From positions 80,454 through 140,783 of the forward strand of contig NZ_KN266212.1 in NCBI RefSeq assembly GCF_000766945.1: a DNA stretch of 60,330 bases, in the 5' to 3' direction. The DNA is from Cellvibrio mixtus subsp. mixtus J3-8. Lineage in GTDB: Bacteria > Pseudomonadota > Gammaproteobacteria > Pseudomonadales > Cellvibrionaceae. Positions 2,043-17,065 of this stretch are shown here, piece by piece. Numbering within the stretch: position 1 is the first letter of the stretch; every line of letters begins with the position of its first letter. The position numbers and the translations under genes are program-made. The notes under the pieces were generated by a model. That model saw only the letters and a program-made list of their open reading frames with translations. It ran no database searches and was not told the DNA's origin.

Positions 2043-3125
2043 TCATGATTCTGCACTTTGAAGCGCGTTTTGCTCTGCAATTTTCTTGCAGAATTGACTT
2101 GGCGTCATACCGGTTTGCTTTTTAAATGCGGAATTAAATGTGGATTTTGAGCCGAACCCAACCGCATAGGCCACATCCAGTAAGTTGCCAGATTGATTGG
2201 TTGCAAACTCAATAGCTGCTGCATCAACCCTGAGCTGATTGATATATTCGGAAAAATTTTTCTGTGAGCCCTGGTTAATAATCCAGGATAGGGTTTTTTC
2301 CTGGATGCCGGTCTCGGTCGAAAGATCGCGCAAGCTAAGCCTGGATTGCCGATAAAGCTGGCGATCCCGGATAATCTTGTCCACTTCCTGAAATAATGAA
2401 TGCGCTTCTGTATCGGTAGTGGTTTTTTCCGGTTGTGGGGTTTTGTTCAGGTATTCAAATTCACTGAATTGATTAAATAGCTGTGGTTGCCGTACCACCA
2501 TAATAATCAGGTAACTGATAAGCCCGGTATAAATACTGATATTGATGAAGTACCAGCGCTGTAGCCACTCCGGTGCAAGAAATGGCTGCAGGTTCAGCCG
2601 CACCAGATCCTGCAGCATCATAACCAACAGCATGGCGATAATGCCGGTCATCCAGTGGATTGAAATATCCGGCGCGTTGGAACTCGTTTGTTTTACCACT
2701 CTGTGGTAACGCTGGATCAAATTGATAGCAAACGATAAATAAATGATCTGGCTGATACTGCCCAACGCAATAACAATTTGCAGCCACTGGGTAAATGGCA
2801 GGGTCAGGAGTATGGGCGATAAATGCAGGGCCAATTGGCGAACACTCGGTGCCTTGTTATAAACCAATTGATTGCAAAACCAATAGAACACCGGGCCAAA
2901 ACCCAGCAATAGTGCCGGCGTAACCATGTGCAAATTGCGTGAAATACCCGTTTCTTCCAGCAAATTGAAAGTCATCAATAGCGCTACCAGTGATAACAGG
3001 ATTCGCACACTGCTGATGCGCTCGTTACCACTGACAAGCAGCAATCCAAGCAGGCACACAGCAAGATAAACGATATGGACCAGGTTGACTGGCAGTAACG
3101 TAACCGGGGAAATCAGGGTATCCAT
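2043..3125 (-). CDS. AraC-family regulator with a membrane-spanning N-terminal half
   Basis: About 360 residues. The first 220 form some seven hydrophobic helices, followed by a linker rich in charged residues and a C-terminal AraC-type double helix-turn-helix (LSLRDLSTETGIQEKTLSW and LLDVAYAVGFGSKSTFNSAFKKQTGMTPSQF). Such proteins are thought to sense something in the membrane and bind DNA from there. An in-frame ATG at 3185 would add 20 residues. I prefer 3125 because the added stretch (RNNLRNNL) is made by a 12-bp tandem duplication and the membrane part begins directly after residue 1. The gene is divergent from the yjfI-pspA island, and the shared 220-bp region is full of inverted repeats, so it may regulate itself, the island, or both. 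Confidence 0.8.
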   Translation of the reverse strand: MDTLISPVTLLPVNLVHIVYLAVCLLGLLLVSGNERISSVRILLSLVALLMTFNLLEETGISRNLHMVTPALLLGFGPVFYWFCNQLVYNKAPSVRQLALHLSPILLTLPFTQWLQIVIALGSISQIIYLSFAINLIQRYHRVVKQTSSNAPDISIHWMTGIIAMLLVMMLQDLVRLNLQPFLAPEWLQRWYFINISIYTGLISYLIIMVVRQPQLFNQFSEFEYLNKTPQPEKTTTDTEAHSLFQEVDKIIRDRQLYRQSRLSLRDLSTETGIQEKTLSWIINQGSQKNFSEYINQLRVDAAAIEFATNQSGNLLDVAYAVGFGSKSTFNSAFKKQTGMTPSQFCKKIAEQNALQSAES

Positions 3126-3129
3126 CAAC

Positions 3130-3153
3130 AGGTTGTTCCTTAGGTTGTTCCTT
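3130..3153. repeat. Two tandem copies of a 12-bp unit at the AraC gene start
   Basis: AGGTTGTTCCTT occurs twice in a row. On the coding (minus) strand each unit reads AAGGAACAACCT, so the duplication doubles a Shine-Dalgarno-like AAGGA just before the ATG at 3125. It adds RNNL to the protein if the 3185 start is used. Confidence 0.75.
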
Positions 3154-3262
3154 GTTGTTTGCTTGTTTGCAGGGCGAGGAATCATAAATCATCTTTCCCC
3201 GGTTTTCTGAATATAGTGTGTCGCTTAGATTATTTTCTGATTGATATTGCCAAAGAGCCCAT

Positions 3263-3296
3263 CTTTTGATTATCAAAAGGTGGGTTTCATCTTTTG
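3263..3296. promoter_or_regulatory. Operator-like inverted and direct repeats between the AraC gene and yjfI
   Basis: CTTTTGAT-T-ATCAAAAG at 3263-3279 is a perfect inverted repeat around one base. The 9-mer CATCTTTTG occurs at 3260-3268 and again at 3288-3296, a 28-bp offset. The region lies in the divergent intergenic space and is a natural candidate for binding of the adjacent AraC-type regulator. The regulator assignment is inference. Confidence 0.4.
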
Positions 3297-3356: not shown

Positions 3357-3398
3357 TTACATGTAATATTTGATTTATTACATGTAATGTTTTAATGT
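3357..3398 (+). promoter_or_regulatory. Paired TTACATGTAA palindromes overlapping a possible yjfI promoter
   Basis: The 10-bp palindrome TTACATGTAA occurs at 3357-3366 and 3378-3387, exactly 21 bp apart, so both sites face the same side of the helix. A possible promoter, TTGATT (3370-3375), 17-bp spacer, TAATGT (3393-3398), would place the second palindrome inside the spacer, the usual position for a repressor site. Transcription would then begin within a few bases of the yjfI ATG at 3406. The palindromes are certain; the promoter elements are weak, and TAATAT at 3364-3369 is another possible -10. Confidence 0.45.
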
Positions 3399-3405
3399 TC
3401 CTTTC

Positions 3406-4035
3406 ATGCAGAAAAAATCATCAGCTCATTACCAGCGCGAATACCGCAACCGGCTGCGGGAACAAGGGTTCGTGAAAAAAGAGGTGTGGATTCTCCCGGA
3501 GAATGCGCGCCGCCTTTCTCTTTATGAGATGGAGTTGCGGGTGTCTGCCAAACAGGTTGTTTCCCGTGGGTTTATGCCAGTGAAAGGAGAAAGTCGAATG
3601 ACCGATGTTGTTAACCGTTGGACCACCCCAAGCCTCTACGATGCACTGGGCAAATCGGAATTGTTTGCCGGTGAGCGGGCGGAGATCGAATTAATTGATG
3701 GTGTGGCGCCGGCGCTACATATCACTATGTATGAATATGGCGATTTGCCGTTGTTCGTCACCGTATCGGGCGAGCAAATAGTGGTTGAAGCAACCTTGTG
3801 GTCATTGTCAGAAGTGACTGACCCGGCCTTGTTTAATGAAACGGTATTGCGCACCCATAAATATTTTCCATTGTCGACGATTAGCCTGGACAAAATCGAT
3901 GGCGATGATTGTTACCACATGTTCGGTGCGCTGAGTTCTGCGTCCAGTTTGCAAGATATTGTATTTGAAATTGAAATTCTGGCTTCTAACGTCATCCAGG
4001 CAACCGAGGCTTATGCGGATTTTCTCTTGAAATAA
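3406..4035 (+). CDS. yjfI: YjfI family (DUF2170) protein with an extra N-terminal domain
   Basis: 209 residues. Residues 65-209 (from MTDVVNRW) match the DUF2170/YjfI family, which in E. coli lies beside the PspA homologue yjfJ. Residues 1-64 form a short basic domain (HYQREYRNRLREQGFVKKEV) that resembles the DNA-binding N-terminus of MazE-like/DUF3018 antitoxins, a ribbon-helix-helix type; this resemblance is my reading and needs a profile search. No Shine-Dalgarno precedes the ATG at 3406. A clear one (AAAGGAG) lies eight bases before an internal in-frame ATG at 3598, which would give a 145-residue DUF2170-only product. The gene heads the PspA-flotillin-AAA island. Confidence 0.8.
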   Translation: MQKKSSAHYQREYRNRLREQGFVKKEVWILPENARRLSLYEMELRVSAKQVVSRGFMPVKGESRMTDVVNRWTTPSLYDALGKSELFAGERAEIELIDGVAPALHITMYEYGDLPLFVTVSGEQIVVEATLWSLSEVTDPALFNETVLRTHKYFPLSTISLDKIDGDDCYHMFGALSSASSLQDIVFEIEILASNVIQATEAYADFLLK

Positions 4036-4086
4036 AAAACTCTTGAAATAAAAAATTCCTGAAATAAAAAGCTATTGAAATAATGG
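4027..4086 (+). repeat. 16-bp tandem repeat, nearly four copies, at the yjfI stop codon
   Basis: Copies begin at 4027, 4043, 4059 and 4075. Each reads TTGAAATAAAAA or a one-base variant, followed by four variable bases; the last copy is cut to TTGAAATAATGG. The first copy holds the last codons and TAA stop of yjfI, so the repeat has duplicated the gene's end. The 16-bp unit is not a multiple of three, so it shifts frame with every copy and does not extend the protein. Confidence 0.8.
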
Positions 4087-4132
4087 ATTTTAATTAACAA
4101 GTTCCTAGCGGATATTATCGAGGTAAATACGT

Positions 4133-4831
4133 ATGAATATCTGGTCGAAAATGATTACTGCCTTGCGCGGTGGCGTGAATGAAGCAGGTGAGGCGATAGT
4201 AGATAGTCAGGCGTTGCGTATTCTGGATCAGGAAGTTCGCGATGCGGGTGAAGAATTAAAACGCTCCAAAGACAGCCTTGCGGAAATTATGGCGCGTCAA
4301 AAGCTGGCCGAAGAAAAATGCAAACAATTGCAAAAGAATATCGACGAGCATGAAGGCTACGCGGCAAAGGCATTGGAAAAAGGTGATGAAAAACTCGCGC
4401 TGGAAGTCGCAGAGCGCATTGCAGAATTTGAAAATAGCCTTACTTCGGAAAAAGAAGCTGCGGAAGGTTTTGCGCAAAGCGTCGCAAAATTGCGCGCGGC
4501 GATTGACCAGGCAGAAAAAAATATCAAGCGTCTGAAGCAGCAAGTGGATACGGTAAAGGCCACTGAAAATGTGCAGCGCGCACAAGCTGCCGTTGCTGAG
4601 CGCCACAGTGGCTCGGATTCAAAAATGCGCACGGCAATGGAATCGCTGGAGCGCATCAAGGAGCGCCAGGCGTTAAAAGATGCGCAATTTAAAGCTGCCG
4701 ATGAAATGGCAAAAACCAGTGGCGATGATTCACTCAAGGCAAAGTTGGAAGCTGCTGGAATAACGACCAGTGGAAAATCAGCGGAAGATGTGTTGGCGCG
4801 AATCAAAAATAAATCCACAAACCAAAATTAA
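4133..4831 (+). CDS. yjfJ: PspA/IM30 family membrane-associated protein (YjfJ-like)
   Basis: 232 residues, almost wholly alpha-helical coiled coil rich in Glu, Lys and Ala, as in PspA, Vipp1/IM30 and E. coli YjfJ. The N-terminus MNIWSKMITALRGGVNEAGE is the amphipathic membrane-binding helix typical of the family, and the long hairpin follows. Members form ESCRT-III-like polymers that bind and stabilise the cytoplasmic membrane. Start chosen from GAGGT eight bases before the ATG. It follows yjfI and precedes yqiJ/yqiK on the same strand, so a shared transcript is likely. No PspF, PspB or PspC is visible, so control differs from the classical phage-shock system. Confidence 0.9.
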   Translation: MNIWSKMITALRGGVNEAGEAIVDSQALRILDQEVRDAGEELKRSKDSLAEIMARQKLAEEKCKQLQKNIDEHEGYAAKALEKGDEKLALEVAERIAEFENSLTSEKEAAEGFAQSVAKLRAAIDQAEKNIKRLKQQVDTVKATENVQRAQAAVAERHSGSDSKMRTAMESLERIKERQALKDAQFKAADEMAKTSGDDSLKAKLEAAGITTSGKSAEDVLARIKNKSTNQN

Positions 4832-4870
4832 TCGCGTGCAGTAAAAATTTAATATTAAGGACGATGAAGA

Positions 4871-4975
4871 ATGGAATCACGAGAAGCGAGCTTGCCAGTA
4901 GTTTTATGCCATGGCAAATCTATTCGGAATGTGTTTAAAAACCATCTGTATAGTTTTCTGGAATATTCAGTATGA
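4871..4975 (+). CDS. Possible 34-residue leader ORF coupled to yqiJ
   Basis: Small open frame in the 140-bp space between pspA/yjfJ and yqiJ. It starts at an ATG ten bases after AAGG and encodes MESREASLPVVL..., 34 residues ending in LEYSV. Its TGA overlaps the yqiJ ATG as ATGA, the classic arrangement for translational coupling. No relatives recognised. It may be a real micro-protein, a translated leader, or chance. Confidence 0.35.
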   Translation: MESREASLPVVLCHGKSIRNVFKNHLYSFLEYSV

Positions 4976-5634
4976 ATGATTTTTTACTCACCATTGTCAG
5001 TTTTCCTACGGTGATCTTCACCTTTGTATTGGGTGTGGCCACGCTCTATTGGGTGTGCGCAGCTATCGGTTTATTCGACATCGAAATATTGGATGTAGAT
5101 TTACCGGATGGGCACCTGCATGCCCATGCCGAACACAGCTTTGCCGAAACCTTTGCCGGCATTCTGTTGCGCTTGGGGCTCAACGGGGTTCCGGTCACAA
5201 TCATTATTACCCTCATCGCATTGATCGGTTGGTTTATCAGTTACTACCTTAGTTATTTCGAATCGTGGTTGTTCGGTTATGGCTGGCTCAGGTTTGTTAT
5301 CGGTATTCCGGTGTTCATATTTTCGTTGTATGTAGCTGTGCTTATCACTGCGCAATTAATAAAACCATTGCGTAGGCTTTTTGCAAAAGCCGATCAATAT
5401 GTAGAAAAGAAAATTCTTGGTCAAACAGCAATAGTGCGTTCATCAAAAGTCGATGCGCATTCCGGTGAGGCTAGTTTTGATGATGGCGGTGCAGGTTTAA
5501 TTGTAAAGGTTCGCGCAATTGGCGAGCAGCAATTTGTACGTGGTGAGCGTGTGGTGTTGTTGGAGTATCGCGCGGGGCAGCATGTGTATAACGTAATTTC
5601 TGAAGCGGAATTTCTGGGTAAGCCCAGCGAATAA
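4972..5634 (+). CDS. yqiJ: YqiJ family inner-membrane protein with OB-fold domain
   Basis: 220 residues. Residues 1-130 hold three or four membrane segments (LLTIVSFPTVIFTFVLG near the start, then segments near 65-90 and 100-120) with the family's histidine-rich loop HLHAHAEHSF. Residues 140-220 form a soluble NfeD-like OB-fold (GQTAIVRSSKV ... GERVVLLEYRAGQHVYNV). YqiJ/NfeD proteins are encoded beside flotillins and act with them at the membrane, which fits the next gene. The ATG overlaps the stop of a possible upstream micro-ORF. Confidence 0.88.
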   Translation: MNDFLLTIVSFPTVIFTFVLGVATLYWVCAAIGLFDIEILDVDLPDGHLHAHAEHSFAETFAGILLRLGLNGVPVTIIITLIALIGWFISYYLSYFESWLFGYGWLRFVIGIPVFIFSLYVAVLITAQLIKPLRRLFAKADQYVEKKILGQTAIVRSSKVDAHSGEASFDDGGAGLIVKVRAIGEQQFVRGERVVLLEYRAGQHVYNVISEAEFLGKPSE

Positions 5635-5670
5635 TTGTTAACTATTAAAGGGTAAAAAGGAGTACTAAAA

Positions 5671-7662
5671 ATGTTTGATCCTGCTATGTTCGCACCAGTC
5701 GCAACCGGCGTGTTTTTTGTATTTTTAGCTTTGATGGGCTTGGCGGGTATTTTCAAAGCATTTTATAACAAGGTAGCGCAGGGAACTGCCTTGATCGTGA
5801 ATGATACGACATCTACACCTAAAGTACATTTTACCGGTGCCCTGGTGTGGCCCATCATCCACAAAAAAGAATTGATGAATATTTCGCTGATTACGCTGGA
5901 AGTGGACCGCCGTGGTCGCGATGGATTGATCTGTAAAGACAATTTGCGCGCAGATATTACTGTTGCATTCTATTTGCGTGTAAACGAAACACCGCAAGAC
6001 GTATTGCGTGTGGCCAAGGCCATTGGCGCGGAGCGCGCCTCCGATCGCGAAGCCGTGGAGTTGTTATTTGCGGCGAAATTCTCTGAAGCCTTGAAGACTG
6101 TTGGTAAACAAATTGAATTTATCCAATTGTTTGAAAACCGTTTGGAGTTCCGTGAAAAAATCATCCAGGTAATTGGTGATGACTTGAATGGTTATGTATT
6201 GGAAGATGTAGCAATCGATTACATTGAACAAACTCCAAAGGCATCGCTTGATCCGAATAATATCCTGGATGCAGAAGGGATCAAAAAAATTACCGAGTTA
6301 ACTGCTGCGCAAAATGTACGTACCAATATCCTTGAGCGCGATGAAGAATTGGCAATCAAGAAAAAGAATGTAGAAACCACAGAAGCCATGCTCGCCCTTG
6401 AGCGCCAGCAGGCGGATGCTGAAGCGCGCCAGAAACGCGAGATTGCCTCCATTCAAGCGCGCGAAGAAGCGGAAACCAAAAAAGTCCAGGAAGAAGAACG
6501 TCGCAAGTATGAGCAAACGGCGATTCAGGTTGCACAGGATCTGTCGGTACAAACTGAAAACCAGAAACGTGAAATTGAAGTGGCTGAGCAAAATCGTTTG
6601 CGTGCAGTAGCGATTGAACAGGAAAAAGTCACCCGGGCCCGTGATCTGGAAGTAGTTGCGCGTAAACGTGAAGTGGAATTGCAAACCATTGAAGCAGAAA
6701 AAGCGATTGAATTGCAGAAGAAAGAAATCGCTAACGTTATTCGCGAACGTGTAGTAGTGGATAAAACGGTTGCAATTGAAGAAGAACGTATTAAGGAAGT
6801 GCGCGAAGTTTCTGATGCGGACCGTAAGAAACAAGTACAAGTGCTGGCTGCAGAAGCAGCAGCGGAAGAAGAAAAAGTGAAGCAGGTGAAAGCAGCGGAA
6901 GCAGAAGAACTTTCCGCAAAGCACAAAGCCAGCGAAATTATGACAATGGCACAGGCCAAATTGGAAGCCTCTGCAAAAGAAGCGGAGGCGATGAAAAAAC
7001 TGGCCGAGGGGATTCAAGCCGAGCGTGCAGCTCCCGGCTTGGCCGATGCGAAAGTGCAGGAAGCCAAAGCAACGGCGTTGGAAAAAGAAGGTGTGGCTGA
7101 GGCCAGCGTTATTCGTGCGAAAGGCACTGCAAATGCAGAAGCCGGCAAAGCAGAAGCTGAAGTGATTAGTGCGAAAGGCCATGCAGAAGCCGATGTTATT
7201 GCTACCAAAGGCACTTCTGAGGCCACAGCGAAAAAAGAAGTGGGCCTGGCGGGCGCTGAAGTTACACGCGAACAATTTAAAGCAGAGGCGGACGGCTTGA
7301 CTGAGAAGTTCGAGGCGATGAATGCGATGAGCGAAAGCGCGCGTTCACATGAGGAGTTCCGTATGGGATTGGAAACTTCGCTGAAGGAAACCTTGGCAAG
7401 CATTGCAGCGGGCAAAGAAATTGCGAAAGAAAATGCAGAGATTCTTGCGATCGCGTTGCAGAAAGCGCATATCGATATTGTCGGAGGTGAGGCACAATTT
7501 TTTGATAATTTCGCCAAGTCCTTATCGATTGGTAAAGCGATTGACGGACTGGCTGGAAAGAGTGGTGTGATTCAGGCGGTGCTGGACCGTTTCGTTAATA
7601 AGGGTGCTGTTGCGGCTCCGGTAGCGAAAGAAAAGGCGGAAGACGTTGAGGTGGTGGGTTGA
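5671..7662 (+). CDS. yqiK: Flotillin-like SPFH protein (YqiK)
   Basis: 663 residues. One N-terminal membrane segment (about 6-28, TGVFFVFLALMGLAGIF), an SPFH/band-7 domain (about 30-225, with LEVDRRGRDGLICKDN and the FREKIIQVIGDDLNGY helix), then a very long coiled coil (about 220-590) rich in Glu, Ala and Lys, and a C-terminal tail with DIVGGEAQFFDNFAKSL typical of the YqiK branch. Flotillins scaffold membrane microdomains. AAGGAG precedes the ATG. The gene lies 36 bp after yqiJ, the same pairing as E. coli yqiJK. The Ala-Lys-Gly-rich stretch at about 455-530 contains repeated KGTANAEA/KGHAEAD-like units. Confidence 0.92.
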   Translation: MFDPAMFAPVATGVFFVFLALMGLAGIFKAFYNKVAQGTALIVNDTTSTPKVHFTGALVWPIIHKKELMNISLITLEVDRRGRDGLICKDNLRADITVAFYLRVNETPQDVLRVAKAIGAERASDREAVELLFAAKFSEALKTVGKQIEFIQLFENRLEFREKIIQVIGDDLNGYVLEDVAIDYIEQTPKASLDPNNILDAEGIKKITELTAAQNVRTNILERDEELAIKKKNVETTEAMLALERQQADAEARQKREIASIQAREEAETKKVQEEERRKYEQTAIQVAQDLSVQTENQKREIEVAEQNRLRAVAIEQEKVTRARDLEVVARKREVELQTIEAEKAIELQKKEIANVIRERVVVDKTVAIEEERIKEVREVSDADRKKQVQVLAAEAAAEEEKVKQVKAAEAEELSAKHKASEIMTMAQAKLEASAKEAEAMKKLAEGIQAERAAPGLADAKVQEAKATALEKEGVAEASVIRAKGTANAEAGKAEAEVISAKGHAEADVIATKGTSEATAKKEVGLAGAEVTREQFKAEADGLTEKFEAMNAMSESARSHEEFRMGLETSLKETLASIAAGKEIAKENAEILAIALQKAHIDIVGGEAQFFDNFAKSLSIGKAIDGLAGKSGVIQAVLDRFVNKGAVAAPVAKEKAEDVEVVG

Positions 7663-8015
7663 TTTTTTTCATTGTTGAAAAGATCGAATAAGGTTTTGTT
7701 GCTCGTAAGCATGTTTAACGTTGAGGTTTGGTTTCAATACTGTCAATTTGCAATTACAGGGATGTGCTTGCCTTATCTCTTTAGGGGCAACGCAATAATG
7801 AATGCAGTGATGCAATTGATCGTGCTCCATGAAGGCGCTGTGTAATGGTGAGTAGCAAGCAAAATATATTTTGCGCTAGTGAAATACCTGTATTCTTTCA
7901 GGCAAGCCTTATGTAGCGAATATTGATAAATATTTGAAACCAGATTTCCAGCGATAAACAGTTTGCAGTAAGAAACTTTATTTACGTTGACTGCTTAGTT
8001 TAAAAGGAATCCATC
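7663..8015. other. 353-bp intergenic region inside the island
   Basis: Separates yqiK from the AAA+ gene on the same strand. It holds a perfect 16-bp palindrome (GCAAAATATATTTTGC, 7859-7874). An open frame of 44 codons starts at 7710 but lacks a convincing ribosome site. The AAA+ ATG is preceded by AAAAGGAA. No clear terminator or sigma-70 promoter was found, but the length suggests that the downstream genes may have their own promoter. Confidence 0.4.
7859..7874. promoter_or_regulatory. 16-bp perfect palindrome upstream of the AAA+ gene
   Basis: GCAAAATATATTTTGC is fully self-complementary and lies 142 bp before the AAA+ start codon. It could be a dimeric regulator's site; it lacks the GC-rich stem and T-run of a terminator. 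Confidence 0.35.
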
Positions 8016-11000
8016 ATGGCGCAGCAAAACGATGCCGCCCAGGCTGCTGACAATATTGTAGATAAAGCCGTTGCCGAAGGCGGAGCTTATGAAATTATTC
8101 GCAAGCGTTTGCTGGATCAAGGTCAGCAGCTTACCCAAAAAGTACGTGAACTGAATAATGCACGCCTCGCCGAGTTTGGCAGTTCTGCCATGGTCGCAAC
8201 AGCGCGTGTGCGTGTGCGCACGGAAAATAATTGCATTTCTCGCGATATAGTGCAGGTTGGCGATTATCTGCTATTTGGATATAACGTCTTTATTGGTTTA
8301 AAAAAAGAAACCAAAGTTGAAGATGTATTTTCGCTCTTTATTAAAAAAGATACTGACGCCGGTGTTGAGCTGGAACAAGTCGGCTTTGCGGATACTTTTT
8401 TAGCGGAACAAAGCTTTGTTAACGACTTTGATGAATTGTATCGTTATTACAAAGATACGCGCATCGTTGAGTTGACGATCAATAACGGAAAGTTGCTTGC
8501 CGGTTTCCAGATTGGTGAGCGGCTGGATGATATTCGCGTATTCCGCTGGTCAATTTCTCCCGACGGCAAAACTGTAAAGTACATTGATAATCGTGGTGAA
8601 CGCGATATTCAATTGCCTCCGGCTTTTGATTTCGAATGGGTTCCCGCTACCCGCGAAAATGCTGTACATGGGCGCCACCCGCATTTAAATATCCTCGACA
8701 AGGTATTTGTTGAAACGGTTGGTGGTGACCTCACCATTAAAATCGAAAATAATACTGAAGACGGCTTGGGTATTTATCGCGAAACGGTTGAAGATAAAAC
8801 CCAGTCACTGGATGACGCCAGCGTATTTTATGCAGCAGTTGGTAATTTGGTATTGTTAAAAATCCGCCCTTATCGCGAGGAGCAATTTCGCTACCTGATT
8901 TTCAATTCACTGACACAAAGTGTATTGCGGATCGATAAAATCGGACAAAGCTGCGTACAGTTACCGGAAAGCCACGGTATTATTTTTCCCGGCGGCTATT
9001 ATCTAAATACTGGCGAATATAAAACCTTTGAGGAAGATAATAGTACGTTTCGCTTCAAGCGCATGATCCGTTCGCCCAACGGCGAAGATGTGCTCTACGT
9101 ATTTTATGAACCGGCGGTCGGCTTGGTTTCGCTACTGGCATACAACATTATTGAAAAGAAATTGCAAAATCCCATTTATGGCAGCGGTTATGCGCTTGCT
9201 GATAATGGCGAAATAGTTATTTTCTCTGCTGAAGCTGAACCTACCCGGGTACATCCCATGCAAATATGGGAAACACCTTACGTCAGTACAGAATTTGCGA
9301 GCAAAGTGCCGGCACGGCAAAATTTTTATGGCCGCGTTGGCAACAATGAATTAGTGCGCGGCATTTCAGATTTTTACAGTATTGGTCGCATTATTGGCAA
9401 CCAATCGGTTTCTGTGCGCCTCTATGAAGAATTAAGCCTTGCTGCTAAAAAGGTATTCGATAGTTATTATTGGCTCAGTGAAAACGAAACCAGTTCAATT
9501 GCGTCTGTGTTAAAAGAAATTTCCGCAACGGCGGAATTGGTTATCGACGAGTTTGAAAAGGTAGAATCTATCCGTCAGCAATCTGCCAAAGCCATGCAGG
9601 ATGCAGAGCGTGAGCAAGAAACTATTTTACAATCGCTACGTCCGGAAAATTGGAGCACGGCTGAGGATTATGTGGATGCATTAAGCCGTGTACGTAAACA
9701 GCGCGGCCACCTGGCAACAATTAAAGATTACCGTTATATCGACCAGGCGCGTATTGCGCAGCTGGATCAGCAGTTGCTTGATGCAAACACCACATTAAGT
9801 GAGCAAACAGTTGTTTATCTGTCGGATGAAAAATCCCTCACACCTTATCTCACCAAACTGGATGAGTTAAATCAGCAAGTGGAGAAGGCAGAAACAAACG
9901 CAGCGATTACCCCCATTATTGAAGTGATTGAAAAAACCGCTTCGGGTCTGGATTTGTTGTCGGAGTTGATGGGCACACTTAAGGTAGACGACGCTACAGT
10001 GCGTACGCGCATTGTAGACGCAATTTCCGAAGTCTATGCCAGGCTCAACCAAAGTAGGGCTAACGCAAAATACAAGCAAAGGAATTTTGGTTCTGCTGAA
10101 GCCGTTGCGCAATTTGGTGCGCAATTTAAATTATTCTCCCAAAGTATTGCCCATGCTTTGGGGTTGGCAACTACGCCGGAAAAATGCGACGAACAACTTT
10201 CAAAATCACTCGTGCGTCTGGAAGAATTGGAAGGACAGTTCAGTGAGTTTGATCAATTCCTTACGGATATTATGGCGAAACGTGAGGAAATTTATGAAAG
10301 TTTCCAGGAGCATAAGCAGCGCTTATTAGATGAGCGCCAGAAAAAAGCACAAAGCATTACCGATGCCGCCGCCCGTATCCTCGCCAGTATCGAAAAACGT
10401 TCGCTGGGGATCAGCAGCCAGGAAGATTTAAATACATATTTCGCATCGGATGCCCTGGTCCTGAAAATTAATGATTTGGTTGAGCAATTAAAAGCGCTTG
10501 ATAATGCGGTAAAGGCAGATGATCTCGACGCGCGCTTTAAAGCCATTAAGGGCCAGGCATTGCGTGCATTGCGCGATAAAAGCGATATTTTTGAAGAGGG
10601 TGGCAATGTCATCAAGCTGGGCAAGCATAAGTTCAGTGTAAATACCCAGGAACTGGACCTGACGATTATTCCGCGCGAGGGTGAATTAAATTTCCATCTT
10701 GCCGGTACGGATTATTATGCCGCTGTTAATAACACCGAGTTGTTGGAGTTAAAAGATTATTGGTCTGTCAGCCTTGAATCTGAAACAGCAAACGTCTATC
10801 GCGCAGAGTATCTCGCCGCGTTAATCCTGGATGCAGCCGAAAATAATACCGACGGTTTATCTCATAACCAATTGCATGAAGCGTTGATTGATCCTGAAAA
10901 ATTAATCCGTTTGGTGCGTGAATTCAGTGCGCCTCGTTATAAGGAAGGCTATCAAAAAGGTATCCATGATCAGGACGCCGCATTAATTCTTGCAGCGTTG

Positions 11001-13328
11001 GTACCGGCACTGGATGCCGCTGATTTATTAAAGTTTGATCCCCTTGCTCGCGGGCTTGCATTGGTATTTTGGTCAAACCTTAACGAGTTTTCGCTCGCAT
11101 CCAAAACATTGGATAGCGCACTTTCTTTTGAGACATGGAAAGACCGCGCTATTTCAGCCAAACATATGCAGCGCCTGTTTGGGAGCGGTGATGCCCTCAC
11201 AATTCTCGTTGCTGAAGTTGCAGAAACCCTTGCCGAATTTATTGAGCATCATCCAATTCCCGCAACTGCACTGGACGTGAAGCGTGCTGCTGAATATCTG
11301 ATAGAAGAGCTGGCCCGTGAGCGCACGGAATTTATTACCAGCAAATATGCGCTGGAATTAGTGGAGGCATTAAAGCAGTCATTGGATGAGGCGAGCTGGC
11401 GTCATTACCTGGATGTGGCCGATAAAATGCAGGGGTGGCCAGCAGAGCGCTGGAGCCTTGCAGTTGCCTGGTTACAGGCACTGATTAAAGATAAAGGTTT
11501 GGTACATTTAAGCCATTACATTCCTGAAGCTGTCGCGCTATTAAAAACCGATCAGCATGTAGACCGCCGATTTACCGAAGTTGAATTGCAAGTGACCGTC
11601 ACAGGTTTGATGGGAGAGCATCCGTTAATTCAGGATCGCAGCTTGTCGTTTTCAATCGACACATTTGTGCAACGGCTTGCGCAACATCGCTATGAAGTGG
11701 TGCCACAATATCAACGCTATTTGCAATTGCGCCAACAAATTGTTGAACAAGAGCGTTATAGCTTACGGCTCAATGAATTCAAAGCGAAACCGCTCAGCTC
11801 ATTTGTGCGCAACCGTTTAATTAATGAATCCTATTTACCAATTATCGGCGATAACCTTGCAAAACAAATGGGCGCATTGGGAAATAACAAGCGTACGGAT
11901 TTAATGGGTATGCTGATGATGATCTCGCCACCGGGTTACGGTAAAACCACATTGATGGAATATGTGGCGAATCGGTTGGGATTGATTTTTATGAAAATCA
12001 ATTGCCCATCATTAGGCCATGACGTGCTATCGCTTGATCCTGAGCAAGCACCTAACGCCACCGCACGCCAGGAATTGGTAAAGGTAAACCTTGCATTGGA
12101 AATGGGCAATAACGTCATGCTTTACCTTGACGATATCCAGCACACTAATCCGGAATTCTTGCAGAAATTTATTTCGCTCTGTGATGGTACCCGTCGCATT
12201 GACGGTGTATGGCAAGGAAAAACCAAAACCTACGATATGCGCGGAAAAAAATTCTGCGTATGTATGGCGGGTAACCCTTACACCGAATCCGGAGAAGCGT
12301 TTAAAGTGCCGGACATGCTCGCCAACCGTGCCGACATTTATAACCTCGGCGACATCCTCGGAGGCATGGAGGAACAGTTTGCGTTGAGCTATATCGAAAA
12401 CGCCTTGACCTCCAATGCAGTGCTATCACCGCTAGCACTGCGCGATATGCAGGATGTATATAAATTTATCGCCATGGCAAAAGGTGAGCAGGTTGCGACT
12501 ACCGATTTAAGTCATGCTTATTCGGGGGCAGAGGTCAATGAAATTGTTGGTGTGTTGAAAAAATTATTTGAGATCCAGAAAGTAATTTTGAAAATAAACC
12601 AGCAGTACATTGCCTCTGCCGCACAGGACGATAAATTCCGCGTTGAACCTCCATTCAAACTGCAGGGTAGTTATCGCAATATGAACAAGATGACCGAGAA
12701 AGTATCGGCGGTCATGAATGATGCCGAGCTGATGCAAATGATTGCTGACCATTATTTGGGTGAAGCGCAAATGCTTACTACAGGTGCGGAAAGCAATTTA
12801 CTCAAACTGGCAGAACTGCGCGGTAATATGACAGGCGAGCAAAAGGCGCGCTGGGAGCAGATCAAAAAAGATTTCCTGCGCAATAAAGCCATGGGCGGCG
12901 ATTCAGCCGATACCGGCCAGAAATTGATAGTGCAATTGGCGGATGTAGCTGAAGGCGTGCAAAAAATTGCAACGTTGGCGGAGCATAAACCTGAAACCGC
13001 GACACCGGTTGTATCGCAAGATACAGCTGTTGCAGAGTTGGTAAGCCAGTCATTACAGCGGTTAGAAAAATTAGTGAAACCGGCAGCACCAACAGTAGAA
13101 GTTATTAATCAGCCCCTGCCAGGTTTGGATAAAGTGTTGAGCGTGCTTGCGCAAACCCTGGAAGGTGCCATTTTGCCATTAGTACGCAATATGGATAAAA
13201 AACTGGATATCGATTTGCGCAATCATGAAAAGATTGAACAAGTATCCCTGCAAATCAGAAACCTGCAACAAGAGCTTGCGACGACCAAAAACCCAACACA
13301 ATCGCCACCGTTGCCCGAGGTGAAATAA
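8016..13328 (+). CDS. Giant AAA+ ATPase, DNA-repair-ATPase/DUF3686-like
   Basis: 1770 residues, the centre of the island. Residues 1-480 are mostly beta-rich and resemble the DUF3686 region found in proteins annotated as DNA repair ATPases. Residues 490-880 are predicted coiled coil and helical. An AAA+ module lies at about 1270-1520: Walker A SPPGYGKTT (K1310), Walker B VMLYLDD (D1372, D1373) and sensor-1 asparagine in AGNPYTESGEAF (N1420). The C-terminal 170 residues are helical and end in a coiled coil. No signal peptide or membrane segment is visible, so the protein is cytoplasmic or peripheral. Its place between flotillin and rhomboid suggests a membrane-linked remodelling motor more than DNA repair; that role is inference. 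Confidence 0.8.
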   Translation: MAQQNDAAQAADNIVDKAVAEGGAYEIIRKRLLDQGQQLTQKVRELNNARLAEFGSSAMVATARVRVRTENNCISRDIVQVGDYLLFGYNVFIGLKKETKVEDVFSLFIKKDTDAGVELEQVGFADTFLAEQSFVNDFDELYRYYKDTRIVELTINNGKLLAGFQIGERLDDIRVFRWSISPDGKTVKYIDNRGERDIQLPPAFDFEWVPATRENAVHGRHPHLNILDKVFVETVGGDLTIKIENNTEDGLGIYRETVEDKTQSLDDASVFYAAVGNLVLLKIRPYREEQFRYLIFNSLTQSVLRIDKIGQSCVQLPESHGIIFPGGYYLNTGEYKTFEEDNSTFRFKRMIRSPNGEDVLYVFYEPAVGLVSLLAYNIIEKKLQNPIYGSGYALADNGEIVIFSAEAEPTRVHPMQIWETPYVSTEFASKVPARQNFYGRVGNNELVRGISDFYSIGRIIGNQSVSVRLYEELSLAAKKVFDSYYWLSENETSSIASVLKEISATAELVIDEFEKVESIRQQSAKAMQDAEREQETILQSLRPENWSTAEDYVDALSRVRKQRGHLATIKDYRYIDQARIAQLDQQLLDANTTLSEQTVVYLSDEKSLTPYLTKLDELNQQVEKAETNAAITPIIEVIEKTASGLDLLSELMGTLKVDDATVRTRIVDAISEVYARLNQSRANAKYKQRNFGSAEAVAQFGAQFKLFSQSIAHALGLATTPEKCDEQLSKSLVRLEELEGQFSEFDQFLTDIMAKREEIYESFQEHKQRLLDERQKKAQSITDAAARILASIEKRSLGISSQEDLNTYFASDALVLKINDLVEQLKALDNAVKADDLDARFKAIKGQALRALRDKSDIFEEGGNVIKLGKHKFSVNTQELDLTIIPREGELNFHLAGTDYYAAVNNTELLELKDYWSVSLESETANVYRAEYLAALILDAAENNTDGLSHNQLHEALIDPEKLIRLVREFSAPRYKEGYQKGIHDQDAALILAALVPALDAADLLKFDPLARGLALVFWSNLNEFSLASKTLDSALSFETWKDRAISAKHMQRLFGSGDALTILVAEVAETLAEFIEHHPIPATALDVKRAAEYLIEELARERTEFITSKYALELVEALKQSLDEASWRHYLDVADKMQGWPAERWSLAVAWLQALIKDKGLVHLSHYIPEAVALLKTDQHVDRRFTEVELQVTVTGLMGEHPLIQDRSLSFSIDTFVQRLAQHRYEVVPQYQRYLQLRQQIVEQERYSLRLNEFKAKPLSSFVRNRLINESYLPIIGDNLAKQMGALGNNKRTDLMGMLMMISPPGYGKTTLMEYVANRLGLIFMKINCPSLGHDVLSLDPEQAPNATARQELVKVNLALEMGNNVMLYLDDIQHTNPEFLQKFISLCDGTRRIDGVWQGKTKTYDMRGKKFCVCMAGNPYTESGEAFKVPDMLANRADIYNLGDILGGMEEQFALSYIENALTSNAVLSPLALRDMQDVYKFIAMAKGEQVATTDLSHAYSGAEVNEIVGVLKKLFEIQKVILKINQQYIASAAQDDKFRVEPPFKLQGSYRNMNKMTEKVSAVMNDAELMQMIADHYLGEAQMLTTGAESNLLKLAELRGNMTGEQKARWEQIKKDFLRNKAMGGDSADTGQKLIVQLADVAEGVQKIATLAEHKPETATPVVSQDTAVAELVSQSLQRLEKLVKPAAPTVEVINQPLPGLDKVLSVLAQTLEGAILPLVRNMDKKLDIDLRNHEKIEQVSLQIRNLQQELATTKNPTQSPPLPEVK

Positions 13329-13331
13329 TCG

Positions 13332-13883
13332 ATGCGGCGCTTATCTGCAAAGTTTCGCTGGCTATTTTTCTTTGCGGGAATAATGGTTGTTGCACAGGTA
13401 TTTAATTGGGTATTCCAGGGATGGTTATTTCAGTTTGGTTTAATTCCGCGGCAGTTGGATTCATTACCGGGAATTTACATCGCACCGTTTTTACACAGCG
13501 ACCTTGGGCATCTAATCAATAACCTGGTTGGTTTGTTTATCTTTAGCAGTTTGCTTTTTGTGCATTCTTTAAAGCGTTATTTGTGGAGCAGTTTTTTTAT
13601 TATTACGTTAACCGGTGTGTTGGTGTGGTGTTTCGGGCGCAATGCGTTGCATATTGGTGCCAGTGGCTGGATCTTTGGCTTATGGAGCCTGACTATCGCG
13701 ATTGCATGGTTTGATCGGCGTTTCCTGAACATATTGATCGCGTTGGTGGTGGCGTTCTTTTACGGTGGAATGTTATGGGGCGTGCTGCCAACAGATCCCC
13801 GTGTATCATTTGAATCGCATTTATTCGGAGCGATTGCAGGCGTGGTTTGTGCATTCTTCCAGACTGGACGGAATCGCCCATGA
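13332..13883 (+). CDS. Rhomboid family intramembrane serine protease
   Basis: 183 residues with six hydrophobic segments. Rhomboid hallmarks: HSDLGHLINNLVGL in the second helix, GASGWIFG with catalytic S111, and SHLFGAIAG with catalytic H163. It starts three bases after the AAA+ stop, and GAGGTGA within the end of that gene serves as ribosome site, so the two are translationally linked. Rhomboids cleave membrane proteins within or next to the bilayer. In this island a flotillin- or YqiJ-linked substrate is conceivable but unproven. Its TGA overlaps the ATG of a possible 33-residue membrane micro-ORF. Confidence 0.9.
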   Translation: MRRLSAKFRWLFFFAGIMVVAQVFNWVFQGWLFQFGLIPRQLDSLPGIYIAPFLHSDLGHLINNLVGLFIFSSLLFVHSLKRYLWSSFFIITLTGVLVWCFGRNALHIGASGWIFGLWSLTIAIAWFDRRFLNILIALVVAFFYGGMLWGVLPTDPRVSFESHLFGAIAGVVCAFFQTGRNRP

Positions 13884-13981
13884 GGGAAAATGTGGTACCA
13901 GCGCGCCCCTTTTTGTTTTATATACTGTTGCAGCCATTCCGGTTGCTGTTATTGACTTATCTGGCAGTCAATTATTTTTAA
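13880..13981 (+). CDS. Possible 33-residue membrane micro-protein coupled to the rhomboid gene
   Basis: The ATG overlaps the rhomboid TGA as ATGA. The peptide begins MRENVVPARP and continues with about 20 mostly hydrophobic residues (FLFYILLQPFRLLLLTYLAV) before ending in NYF. A short polar head with one hydrophobic helix is typical of real small membrane proteins. It could be an accessory subunit or a rhomboid regulator. No relative recognised; coding status is judged from position and composition only. Confidence 0.45.
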   Translation: MRENVVPARPFLFYILLQPFRLLLLTYLAVNYF

Positions 13982-14024
13982 AATAAATATATCAAAACCC
14001 CTTCAATGAAATAACGGAATTTTC

Positions 14025-14711
14025 ATGCGACAACAAGAATTGGAAAACTGGTTGCAGGCCAGTTTGAGTGATTTTAAATTAAGTCAATCAGAAGCACTGG
14101 AGTTGCGCGATATCCTCCCGCGCCTGGCCAATGATGATATTGCTTACACGCGTAACAAAGCATTCGAGCTTGCGCGCGAGTTTGTTCACGTTGGCGGTGA
14201 TAATGCCGTTGCGACCTTGTTATGGTTGGAAAAACTTAGCAAGGTGATCGACAATTTCCGTCAATCTGAAACTTCCTCCATCGCGGAAGCCCATTTCAGC
14301 CCGGGTGAGGATTGCCGTCGTCAGCTGCTTGATCTACTTATCAGTGCCCGACAATCAATAGACATTAGTGTATTCACCATTTCAGATGATCGCCTTGCCA
14401 ATGCCATTTTAACGGCCTATCAACGTAAGGTTCATGTACGTTTGATTACTGACAACGATAAAGCACAAGATCAGGGTAGTGATATTTATTACCTGATTAA
14501 CCACGGTTTGCCGGTGCGTATGGATTCCACTGAAAATCATATGCATCACAAGTTCGCCGTGATCGACAAGAAAATCCTCGTCAATGGTAGTTTCAACTGG
14601 ACTCGTTCAGCCACGGATTACAACCAGGAAAATATCCTCGTTACTGACGAACCGAAACTGGTCAGTGCCTATCTGGAAGAATTTGAAAATTTATGGCAGG
14701 AATTTAAATAA
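14025..14711 (+). CDS. Phospholipase-D-like protein with a single HxK motif
   Basis: 228 residues. A helical N-terminal domain (about 1-90) is followed by one PLD-fold domain (about 95-225) with the HxKxxxxD catalytic motif at H174-H175-K176 to D181 (MHHKFAVIDKK) and then GSFNWT. One motif per chain implies a homodimer, as in Nuc-type nucleases and mitochondrial PLD. Activity could be on phospholipid or nucleic acid; no signal peptide is seen, so it is cytoplasmic. CGGAA precedes the ATG. It closes the run of island genes with the following zinc-ribbon gene. Confidence 0.85.
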   Translation: MRQQELENWLQASLSDFKLSQSEALELRDILPRLANDDIAYTRNKAFELAREFVHVGGDNAVATLLWLEKLSKVIDNFRQSETSSIAEAHFSPGEDCRRQLLDLLISARQSIDISVFTISDDRLANAILTAYQRKVHVRLITDNDKAQDQGSDIYYLINHGLPVRMDSTENHMHHKFAVIDKKILVNGSFNWTRSATDYNQENILVTDEPKLVSAYLEEFENLWQEFK

Positions 14712-14755
14712 CCACTATTTTATCGACGTTATTAATAATCAAAAAGGAGCGAGTC

Positions 14756-15295
14756 ATGCATTGCAGCACTTGTAAAAATATCCCATTGGAACCGCAAGAA
14801 TTAGAGCCGGGATTGATCGTGGCGAGTTGTCCTTCTTGTAACGGTGTTTTGGTATCGTTAATGAATTATCGCTTTTGGGCTGATCGTTATACTACTGCCG
14901 GTATTACTGTGGAATCGGCGAATGATGATGAAGCTAATGAATCCGAGTCGGTTCATTCGTGTCCCAAATGCAGCCGCTTGATGGTGAAATATCAAATTGG
15001 CTCGCAAACGCAGCATAAGCTCGATTTATGCAGGGCGTGTGATGAGGCCTGGCTGGATAAAGGTGAATGGCAATTGCTCAAACGCCTGGATTTACAAGGT
15101 AAATTACCCAAGGTGTTTACTGACGCATGGCAACGAAATATCCGTAAGCAGCGCCAGGAAGCTGCATTGAATGAACGTTATGAAAAATTATTGGGTGAAG
15201 AATCATTCTTTCGCGTAAAGGAATTCAGGAATTGGCTGTTACAACAACCGAATAAGGACGCTATCAAACAATATTTAATTTCTCATCAGGAATAA
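14756..15295 (+). CDS. Zinc-ribbon (TFIIB-type) domain protein
   Basis: 179 residues. Two zinc-binding clusters are visible: CSTC with CPSC in the first 30 residues, and CPKC with CRACDEAWLD near 65-95, as in the zf-TFIIB family of small bacterial proteins. The C-terminal 80 residues are helical and charged. AGGAG precedes the ATG. Co-directional with the PLD gene 44 bp upstream. Molecular role unknown; the family has been seen near protein-quality and membrane-stress genes, so it may belong to the island. Confidence 0.75.
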   Translation: MHCSTCKNIPLEPQELEPGLIVASCPSCNGVLVSLMNYRFWADRYTTAGITVESANDDEANESESVHSCPKCSRLMVKYQIGSQTQHKLDLCRACDEAWLDKGEWQLLKRLDLQGKLPKVFTDAWQRNIRKQRQEAALNERYEKLLGEESFFRVKEFRNWLLQQPNKDAIKQYLISHQE

Positions 15296-15355: not shown

Positions 15356-16276
15356 ATGTTGAAAAATGTCGGATTAAAGATAATTGGGTTAGAGAAATAC
15401 GGATTTAATCAATATTGGTATTTTTGCGTTTTATTTTTGGGATTGGCTGCATCGGCATACGCGGAGCAGGGCACAAAGCAATTTGTGCTAGCGAATACAG
15501 AGATTGTCCCTATCCAATCCAAAATCACCGGGCGCAACCATGAATTGGTGATTGTGTTTCCTTCCAGTTATCAATCGCAACCGGAGAAGAAATATCCGGT
15601 TCTTTATTATCTGGATGCCTATTGGGATACGCCCTTGCTGGTTTCTACTTATGGAAACCTGATTTACGATAATGAAGTCCCCGAATTTATTATGGTGGGG
15701 TTGTCTTATCCGGCGACGGCGGATTACAGCAAGGAGCGGCGTTTGGATTATACCTTCACTGCGATTGATGAAGGCTCGGGAAAGGCGGAGCAATTTCTGT
15801 CTTTTATCCAAAAAGAAGTTGCGCCATTAGTGGAATCCAAATTCCGTGGAGCGACTTCTGATAGGGTTATAGCAGGAAATTCACTGGGTGGTTTATTCAC
15901 CCTGACCGCGGCCTATAACGCGCCTGGTTTCTTTTCCGGATTTGTTGCGCTAAGCCCTGCTGTTGAGTGGGATAAACAGGCAATTTTCAAACTTGATGAT
16001 GCCTATGCAAAGAAAAATAAAACATTAAATGGGCGGGTATTTATTTCTTACGGTACGCGTGAATATCCGGTGTTCCGCGATCCGATCATCAAATTTCAAA
16101 AAGTATTGGCAGAGCGCCGTTACCAGGGATTAGCCTTGCAAAATTATGTTATGCAGGACCTTGATCATGTGACAGTAAAAGGCGACGGTTTTGTGCGCGG
16201 TTTGATGTGGGTATGGAAGCCGAAAAAACCAGTGGGCCCCAGTGGATTGGAAAAAGCTTATACCGGAGAAAAATAG
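15356..16276 (+). CDS. Esterase of the alpha/beta-hydrolase (esterase D / BesA-like) family
   Basis: 306 residues. An internal hydrophobic segment (about 22-36, ending SAYAEQ) fits a signal peptide with a long n-region, so the enzyme is probably periplasmic. The nucleophile elbow is GNSLGGLF (serine near residue 178) and the late histidine is in DLDHVTV (near 269). Relatives include ferric-siderophore esterases and other carboxylesterases; the substrate cannot be told from sequence. GAGG lies five bases before the ATG. A perfect inverted repeat follows its stop. Confidence 0.8.
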   Translation: MLKNVGLKIIGLEKYGFNQYWYFCVLFLGLAASAYAEQGTKQFVLANTEIVPIQSKITGRNHELVIVFPSSYQSQPEKKYPVLYYLDAYWDTPLLVSTYGNLIYDNEVPEFIMVGLSYPATADYSKERRLDYTFTAIDEGSGKAEQFLSFIQKEVAPLVESKFRGATSDRVIAGNSLGGLFTLTAAYNAPGFFSGFVALSPAVEWDKQAIFKLDDAYAKKNKTLNGRVFISYGTREYPVFRDPIIKFQKVLAERRYQGLALQNYVMQDLDHVTVKGDGFVRGLMWVWKPKKPVGPSGLEKAYTGEK

Positions 16277-16651: not shown

Positions 16652-17065
16652 TTACTTTTCTTCAATTTCATCCACATCTACTTGCCCGCTCATGCGGCGC
16701 GTGATGTGCGACCAACACATACCTACGGCGAGCAGTGCGGCCAGTAAAACTTCAATGACCCAGGCCATCGCAGAAATGTTGGAAACGCTTAAAAATCCCC
16801 AATACACAAATAACCAAACGAGGCTGGCAAATAACGCGGCCAATATAATAATGCCAATTACACCCAATGAATTCAGCGTGGCTTTAATATAAACACCCCA
16901 GCCAATCAATAAAATTAATCCGGCAATTACAACGTACGGCGTGATATGGTCAAATGTGTTATGGACCCAATGAAAATAAGAATAACCACTGGGGTTGTAG
17001 CTGAGCAGCACTAATAAGAGTGCAAACAAAAAACGCAGTGCGATACCTGATGCGGTAAGGTTCAT
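16652..17065 (-). CDS. Four-helix membrane protein, DUF6524-like
   Basis: 137 residues with four hydrophobic segments (about 9-23, 42-60, 66-88 and 100-118). The N-terminal pattern RFLFALLLVLLSYNPSGYSY is characteristic of the DUF6524 family as I remember it. The tail is short and acidic (VDVDEIEEK). AAGGAA precedes the ATG. Function unknown; it is the upstream partner of the 104-residue gene. Confidence 0.7.
   Translation of the reverse strand: MNLTASGIALRFLFALLLVLLSYNPSGYSYFHWVHNTFDHITPYVVIAGLILLIGWGVYIKATLNSLGVIGIIILAALFASLVWLFVYWGFLSVSNISAMAWVIEVLLAALLAVGMCWSHITRRMSGQVDVDEIEEK

What the first reader, a model, noticed from the sequence alone, without database searches (positions are those of the whole stretch)
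3406..15295. Merged PspA-flotillin-AAA+-rhomboid-PLD island: a candidate membrane-surveillance system
Eight recognised genes on one strand combine YjfI, PspA/IM30 (YjfJ), YqiJ, flotillin YqiK, a 1770-residue AAA+ ATPase, a rhomboid protease, a single-HxK PLD-like protein and a zinc-ribbon protein. In E. coli the yjfIJ and yqiJK pairs lie apart. PspA polymers, flotillin scaffolds and intramembrane proteolysis all act on the cytoplasmic membrane, so the AAA+ protein could be the motor that remodels PspA or flotillin assemblies. Parts of such neighbourhoods have been noted in comparative studies of PspA partners; the rhomboid and PLD components and the coupled micro-ORFs are the less expected elements.
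Basis: partly seen in the sequence, partly recalled or inferred. Interest (0 to 1): 0.8.

Follow-up and report, generated by a model that had tools for sequence, protein, structure and literature searches.

The report
Self-regulating PspA-flotillin-AAA+ membrane-stress operon
A known type of bacterial membrane-care operon that here includes a rhomboid protease, and whose first gene appears to make two proteins from two start sites, a repressor of its own promoter and a chaperone, which offers a simple way to switch the machinery on.

Summary
The eight genes are real and correctly placed. The core (DUF2170, PspA, YqiJ-like, flotillin-like, DUF3686 AAA+) is already in print as the P. aeruginosa bac operon and as a PspA operon class of Ravi 2024, PLD included, so the headline is not new. 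Two things seem new. (1) A rhomboid with its catalytic residues follows the AAA+ gene in 23 of 84 well-covered loci, spacing -4 to 41 nt. (2) The first gene looks like a self-contained regulator. Loci whose DUF2170 protein has a 65-residue N-terminal extension carry two ACATGT palindromes over the promoter (45 of 46; control 8 of 567); loci without it have a separate ribbon-helix-helix-like gene (14 of 14, against 0 of 47) and mostly another palindrome. The long start lacks a Shine-Dalgarno (0 of 46) and sits 6-9 nt after the -10 box in 34 of 46, as in leaderless mRNA; an internal Shine-Dalgarno before an in-frame ATG (39 of 46) should yield the chaperone domain alone. Inferred: a leaderless autorepressor plus an internally started chaperone, tuned by PspA. 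DNA binding, both products and the rhomboid's substrate are untested.

The parts
3357..3366 (.). operator 1, TTACATGTAA
   Evidence: exact palindrome; the twin site occurs once in the 5.18-Mb genome
3370..3375 (+). -35 box TTGATT
   Evidence: 17 nt before the -10 box; position read by hand, letters checked
3378..3387 (.). operator 2, TTACATGTAA, lying between -35 and -10
3393..3398 (+). -10 box TAATGT, ending 7 nt before the ATG (leaderless geometry)
   Evidence: letters; the scorer preferred the overlapping TTTAAT, ending 9 nt before the ATG
3406..4035 (+). bacA-like gene, long form (209 aa): N-terminal basic domain (about residues 1-45), linker, DUF2170 chaperone-fold domain (72-207)
3585..3589 (+). 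internal Shine-Dalgarno AGGAG
3598..3600 (+). internal in-frame ATG (Met65), predicted start of the chaperone-only product 3598-4035
4133..4831 (+). PspA/IM30 (YjfJ/BacB type)
   Evidence: PF04012 169.8 bits
4972..5634 (+). YqiJ/NfeD-like membrane protein
   Evidence: PF21001 18.4 bits, below cut-off; same-strand neighbour in 83 of 84 loci
5671..7662 (+). flotillin-like SPFH protein
   Evidence: one of nine homologues hits Band_7
8016..13328 (+). DUF3686 AAA+ ATPase (1770 aa); Walker A GYGKTT and Walker B DD invariant in the 14 aligned (motif names recalled)
13332..13883 (+). rhomboid-family intramembrane protease; Ser111 and His163 invariant in the 10 aligned
14025..14711 (+). PLD-superfamily protein with one HKD motif
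14756..15295 (+). zinc-ribbon protein; accessory, its place varies between loci

Best explanation
This is a bac-type PspA operon: a conserved membrane-stress unit of PspA, a YqiJ-like membrane protein, a flotillin-like scaffold and a very large AAA+ ATPase, here with a rhomboid protease, a PLD-like enzyme and a zinc-ribbon protein as accessories. Shown by sequence: the core linkage; the rhomboid directly behind the AAA+ gene; two palindromes over the promoter; a long-form start without SD just behind the -10 box; an internal SD and ATG before the DUF2170 domain. Inferred: the long DUF2170 protein is an autorepressor that binds the palindromes through its N-terminal domain; the same gene also yields a chaperone-only short form; the chaperone domain binds PspA, so that when PspA is drawn to damaged membrane repression is lost and more of the machinery is made. 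The rhomboid probably clips a membrane client of the AAA+/flotillin platform (least certain step).
For: Core linkage: of 84 deduplicated loci with enough flank, YqiJ-like and flotillin-like genes on the AAA+ strand in 83 each, DUF2170 and PspA in 52 each, PLD 29, rhomboid 23, zinc ribbon 18. Operators: 45 of 46 long-form loci have at least two ACATGT within 200 bp of the start, against 8 of 567 mechanical ORFs of 250 aa or more in the same loci; a core lies within or overlaps the best-scoring promoter in 44 of 46. Dissociation: RHH-like ORF in 0 of 47 long-form and 14 of 14 short-form loci; GACAT-N3-ATGTC in 12 of 13 evaluable short-form loci and 0 of the 45 loci called long. Internal start: SD-ATG in 39 of 46, against 0 of 140 windows later in the same gene, 5 of 287 (pspA), 2 of 277 (yqiJ-like), 17 of 2278 (AAA+) and 56 of 856 (flotillin-like); GGAG sits in two codon phases, 23 and 16. 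The N-terminal domain is translated: differences at codon positions 1/2/3 are 12256/6615/24687, near-equal thirds upstream. Replication: 22 of 22 Pseudomonas long-form loci fetched later show both operators and the internal SD, 19 of them not identical to any of the 46. Outside data: a bacA mutant accumulates Bac proteins (PMC10948618, abstract and discussion). Rhomboid; in the genus 8 of 9 AAA+ carriers have it, 0 of 11 others; its divergence tracks the AAA+ (r 0.93; PspA 0.929).
Against: No DNA-binding, transcription or protein data. The N-terminal domain has only weak family matches (MazE-like in 18 of 39 members, best E 0.0037; UrfF repressor in 29 of 39, best 0.0016) and a low-confidence model. 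Published work proposes a sigma-54 promoter for the P. aeruginosa operon, and P. aeruginosa itself was not met in the genomes searched (best identity 78%). The internal SD fails the rule in 7 of 46 loci. In 12 of 46 the best promoter match is not leaderless, and palindrome letters themselves resemble a -10 box. SD-ATG background in the flotillin-like gene is notable. A 2026 study calls P. aeruginosa SPFH proteins largely dispensable in the laboratory (PMC13086221, passages). PspA as inducer rests on a BacA-BacB interaction that PMC10948618 cites as unpublished. The loci are related, so the counts are not independent.
Confidence: 0.7

Rival explanations
1. Another regulator, encoded elsewhere, binds the ACATGT palindromes, and the N-terminal domain of DUF2170 has a different role.
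For: The domain has no confident DNA-binding family match.
Against: The palindrome type changes with the presence of the fused domain, and where the domain is absent a separate RHH-like gene appears; the twin site occurs once in the own genome, as expected of a dedicated autoregulator.
Confidence: 0.15
2. Only one protein is made: only the long form (the internal SD being a by-product of a conserved linker) or only the short form.
For: Seven of 46 loci lack the internal SD by the rule used; the crystallised BacA is 139 residues and PA3732 is given as 16 kDa.
Against: SD conserved in two codon phases with different residues; third-position bias shows that the N-terminal part is translated; two Pseudomonas loci (L236, L237) have lost or eroded the N-terminal part but keep the internal SD and ATG.
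Confidence: 0.2
3. The AAA+ protein is the motor that remodels PspA polymers or flotillin assemblies, an analogue of Vps4 on ESCRT-III (first reader; Ravi 2024 propose ESCRT-like roles). Compatible with the best explanation.
For: Flotillin-like gene and AAA+ are the most constant pair; catalytic motifs invariant in 14 sequences.
Against: 32 of 84 loci have the AAA+ without PspA on the same strand, so PspA is not an obligatory neighbour; no structural or biochemical test here.
Confidence: 0.45
4. Rhomboid, PLD and zinc-ribbon genes are passengers at the end of the operon.
For: 61 of 84 loci lack a same-strand rhomboid; related rhomboids also lie away from the locus, e.g. L189 and L190.
Against: When present it is immediately behind the AAA+ gene, 12 of 23 with a 4-nt overlap, and co-diverges with it; relatives lie in same-strand runs with another PspA operon type in L196, L198 and L192.
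Confidence: 0.2
5. An anti-phage defence island.
For: The PLD protein matches PADLOC models MkoC (5.6e-10), MkoB and DrmC (1.8e-09) over its PLD domain; the operon is patchy in the genus (9 of 20).
Against: The DrmC score is far below the curated NCBIfam cut-off (41.4 vs 133 bits); the core proteins match no PADLOC model beyond what coiled coil can explain (my judgement).
Confidence: 0.03

Closest known systems
P. aeruginosa bac operon (PMC10948618, PMC2587700; abstract, passages and part of the discussion seen)
   Same: DUF2170 and PspA first, six co-transcribed genes, negative effect of bacA on its partners; BacA domain fold as here (8q8o_B, TM 0.96 normalised by the target)
   Different: 'rhomboid', 'operator', 'palindrom', 'start codon' and 'leaderless' do not occur in PMC10948618; published BacA is the C-terminal part only; sigma-54 promoter proposed there, no sigma-54 enrichment here (5 of 61 loci vs 89 of 768 control)
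Ravi 2024 CesT/Tir-PspA + band-7/flotillin + AAA+ + YqiJ/YuaF operon (PMC11237479; passages seen)
   Same: same core, with PLD in some Proteobacteria
   Different: 'rhomboid', 'operator', 'palindrom', 'leaderless' do not occur in its main text; an RHH regulator is mentioned as final gene of the spermidine-synthase class, not as a domain of DUF2170 in the passages seen
Classical Psp system (PspF-PspABC; recalled)
   Same: PspA plus a dedicated transcription regulator; possible PspA-dependent switching
   Different: here a candidate repressor fused to a chaperone domain at a sigma-70-like promoter, instead of the sigma-54 activator PspF

Membership tests
bac / CesT-Tir-PspA-flotillin-AAA+ operon | DUF2170, PspA, YqiJ-like, flotillin-like and DUF3686 AAA+ genes in this order on one strand | tested here: met
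   flotillin label via one homologue, YqiJ below cut-off
bac / CesT-Tir-PspA-flotillin-AAA+ operon | single transcript | not testable with these tools
   RT-PCR shown in P. aeruginosa only; no terminator-like hit in the 353-bp gap
PSP response | PspA/IM30 protein | tested here: met
   one PF04012 match in the genome
PSP response | induction by membrane stress | not tested
   no expression data
Rhomboid protease | Rhomboid domain with catalytic Ser and His | tested here: met
   PF01694 65.7 bits vs 22.6; S111 and H163 invariant in 10 sequences
Rhombosortase | score above the curated TIGR03902 cut-off | tested here: not met
   33 bits vs 84; all 10 aligned members match it at E up to 0.001, best 6.8e-14
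PLD superfamily | HxK(x)4D motif | tested here: met
   PF13091 111.8 bits; motif residues invariant in 7; a single motif implies a dimer (established knowledge)
CesT/Tir-type chaperone fold | fold of the C-terminal domain | tested here: met
   model against 8q8o, SigE, SicP, ExsC
Ribbon-helix-helix repressor (N-terminal domain of long DUF2170) | beta-alpha-alpha fold and family match | tested here: inconclusive
   weak MazE-like/UrfF matches; helix-coil-helix at low confidence
Ribbon-helix-helix repressor (separate ORF of short-form loci) | RHH fold | tested here: inconclusive
   many of the best Foldseek hits are RHH proteins (Arc, CopG, VapB, FitA; prob up to 0.99) but the best E is 0.32; no RHH Pfam match in 6 scanned
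DISARM (DrmC) | curated DrmC score | tested here: not met
   41.4 vs 133 bits

The most novel reading that the evidence does not exclude
A repressor-type phage-shock circuit without PspF: one gene makes a leaderless-translated autorepressor and, from an internal Shine-Dalgarno, its own chaperone-only partner; mixed dimers or capture by PspA set the threshold, and evolution has alternately fused the DNA-binding part to the chaperone or supplied it as a separate gene with its own operator. The rhomboid is a proteolytic arm of the same flotillin/AAA+ platform.
Probability: 0.5. Interest if true: 0.75.

Novelty: new variant of a known kind. Interest (0 to 1): 0.6.

Why it matters
How PspA operons outside the PspF type are switched on is open, and the bac operon is linked in print to biofilm formation with its regulator called only 'possible'. 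A defined operator, a DNA-binding candidate and a predicted second product turn that into simple experiments, and suggest that the published BacA structure lacks the regulatory domain. The rhomboid adds a protease to a machinery so far described as scaffold plus ATPase.

Tried and rejected
Sigma-54 promoter upstream of the DUF2170 gene: not enriched. AraC gene at 2043-3185 as regulator: among the 34 gene maps only L046 shows a like flanking pair, judged by size. Micro-ORFs: no support. Viral contigs with the AAA+ domain: 6 stretches matched a pattern, none a relative. Large PLD ORFs of 427 aa (L080) and 662 aa (L098): judged by eye to be overlapping-frame read-throughs, not fusions; L080 also holds a rhomboid ORF. 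PDB sequence searches with the AAA+, rhomboid and flotillin-like alignments: nothing. Classical RHH fold for the long form's N-terminus: not claimed.

Corrections on the way: the strict-motif split of DUF2170 (45 long, 16 short) was mended: L111 (Arg for Lys) is long; L098 has a divergent N-terminus without the standard operator and is counted long but left out of the 46; L135 is short with a later start; L085 is too near a contig end to judge its promoter. So 46 analysed + L098 long, 14 short. Six of the 16 had one ACATGT core (GACATGTTATGTC contains it in some); none had the full palindrome. L238-L256 were scored 'short' by the script; read they are long form with a variant motif, with one or two ACATGT or ACGCGT palindromes. 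'Three phases' printed mixes patterns; GGAG alone gives two. p-values ignore relatedness. The correlations include the split AAA+ of L041 and a spurious L085 rhomboid hit.
Full report
What is there. The eight ORFs are real and at the stated places, with Pfam support for DUF2170, PspA, DUF3686/DUF7902/AAA, rhomboid, PLD and zinc ribbon. The YqiJ-like protein is below its cut-off, and the flotillin-like protein hits nothing by itself; one of nine homologues hits Band_7. The window's genus is probably Cellvibrio: relative G019's contig has the length of a named Cellvibrio sp. OA-2007 contig. The genome has one PspA match.

What is already known. Passages of Ravi 2024 (PMC11237479) describe the DUF2170-type CesT/Tir protein with PspA, a band-7/flotillin protein, an AAA+ ATPase with beta-propeller and coiled coil, and a YqiJ/YuaF protein, with a PLD hydrolase in some Proteobacteria. 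The P. aeruginosa bac operon (abstract, passages and part of the discussion of PMC10948618; passages of PMC2587700) has six co-transcribed genes by RT-PCR, starting with DUF2170 and PspA genes; a bacA mutant accumulates its partners. The core is therefore not a new island. I did not see what bacF encodes.

Survey. Own genome included, DUF3686 occurs in 18 of 57 relatives (9 of 20 other genomes of the genus), 11 of 370 genomes of the class and 10 of 397 of the phylum. I fetched 33 of these loci and the best 80 of at least 583 in named genomes. With the window that is 114, 108 after removing near-identical AAA+ proteins, 84 with at least 5.5 kb upstream and 3 kb downstream. The set favours close relatives, since the 80 were the best matches. 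On the AAA+ strand nearby: flotillin-like and YqiJ-like genes in 83 of 84 each, DUF2170 and PspA in 52, PLD in 29, rhomboid in 23, zinc ribbon in 18. Several actinobacterial and myxobacterial loci keep flotillin-AAA+ without PspA.

The rhomboid. In all 23 same-strand cases it follows the AAA+ gene at -4 to 41 nt, 12 with a 4-nt overlap. In the genus a strong match is found in 8 of 9 AAA+ carriers (the ninth contig ends inside the AAA+ gene) and in 0 of 11 others, three of which show only weak matches to other rhomboids. Its distances follow those of the AAA+ (r 0.93), as PspA's do (0.929) and PLD's (0.953). Catalytic Ser and His are invariant in 10. More distant members lie in same-strand runs with DUF2170-PspA of another operon type: L196 (ion channel, DUF4178), L198 (ion channel, spermine synthase) and L192 (ion channel, DUF350, spermine synthase). 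Others lie in unrelated places, beside gyrB (L190) or a DcaP porin gene (L189). A search for PspA, rhomboid and gene neighborhood found no paper; PMC11237479 and PMC10948618 do not hold the word; of 139 papers I saw the 15 listed, none pairing rhomboid with bacterial PspA by title.

The operators. Two TTACATGTAA palindromes stand at 3357 and 3378, over the promoter of the DUF2170 gene. At least two ACATGT cores occur within 200 bp upstream in 45 of 46 long-form loci, most often 21-24 bp apart, against 8 of 567 other ORFs. In 44 of 46 a core lies within or overlaps the best-scoring promoter. The twin site occurs once in the own genome. A text search for the palindromes gave 38 papers; the 15 listed show no bacterial PspA regulator by title.

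Fused or separate DNA-binding part. The 39 aligned long-form proteins share an N-terminal block with invariant S6, A7, Y9, Q10, R14, R16, L17, R18, G21, K24, K25, E26, W28 and P31, weakly like MazE-type antitoxins and the UrfF plasmid repressor. It is translated: differences between loci concentrate at third codon positions. Fourteen loci have a short DUF2170; all 14 have a 106-176-residue ORF downstream of it on the same strand (directly after pspA where a PspA was detected; none was in L061), whose model resembles Arc/CopG-type RHH proteins. None of 47 long-form loci has it. Twelve of 13 evaluable short-form loci carry GACAT-N3-ATGTC upstream. Nineteen more distant Pseudomonas DUF2170-PspA loci, whose operon type I did not examine, are long form with a variant N-terminus and one or two TCACATGTGA- or TCACGCGTGA-like palindromes, and show GGAG shortly before the internal ATG (read by eye).

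Two starts. The long start has no SD in any of 46 loci, and the -10 box ends 6-9 nt before it in 34 of 46 (control 70 of 569 in the wider range 4-10): leaderless geometry. In the linker an SD precedes an in-frame ATG in 39 of 46; backgrounds are 0 of 140 to 56 of 856 windows. GGAG appears in two codon phases, which argues against a mere amino-acid motif. Both features recur in 22 of 22 Pseudomonas long-form loci fetched later, 19 of them new. In L236 and L237 the N-terminal part is lost or eroded while the internal SD and ATG remain.

Mechanism. Shown: linkage, operators, two-start anatomy. Inferred: the long DUF2170 protein represses its own promoter; the chaperone domain, made also alone, binds PspA; loss of free repressor when PspA is engaged at the membrane induces the operon. 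The direction fits the bacA mutant data. The AAA+ as a remodelling motor and the rhomboid's client remain guesses.

Verdict. An already known operon type with a new accessory protease and a new, sequence-supported regulatory anatomy.

Noticed in passing
window 3255-3287: Strong terminator-like hairpin (15 pairs) between the divergent AraC gene and the promoter; a similar inverted repeat is visible by eye upstream in L070, L046, L045 and L050.
   Followed up: no
window 16652-17065 (-): DUF6524 membrane protein (165 bits); an ORF of the same size on the same strand lies downstream in several same-genus loci.
   Followed up: no
window 15356-16276: Putative esterase next to the operon; a homologue is near the AAA+ locus in four of 34 loci, window included, on either side.
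   Followed up: partly
L040:5642-6802, L073:15695-16858: Mechanosensitive-channel-like gene directly after the AAA+ gene, with the zinc ribbon further down and no rhomboid there.
   Followed up: partly
L037:13257-14096: M90 peptidase with SEC-C motif directly after the rhomboid.
   Followed up: partly
L252, L253, L254: Operators with CACGCGTGA cores go with a distinct N-terminal variant (AGYVKHExW), hinting at co-variation of protein and site.
   Followed up: no
L059, L126, L139: Loci without DUF2170/PspA still show GACATATTATGTC upstream of the YqiJ-like gene, as if controlled by a regulator elsewhere.
   Followed up: no
window 13930-13946: Weak terminator-like stem in the rhomboid-PLD gap; the gap is longer in the window (141 bp) than in its close relatives.
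   Followed up: no
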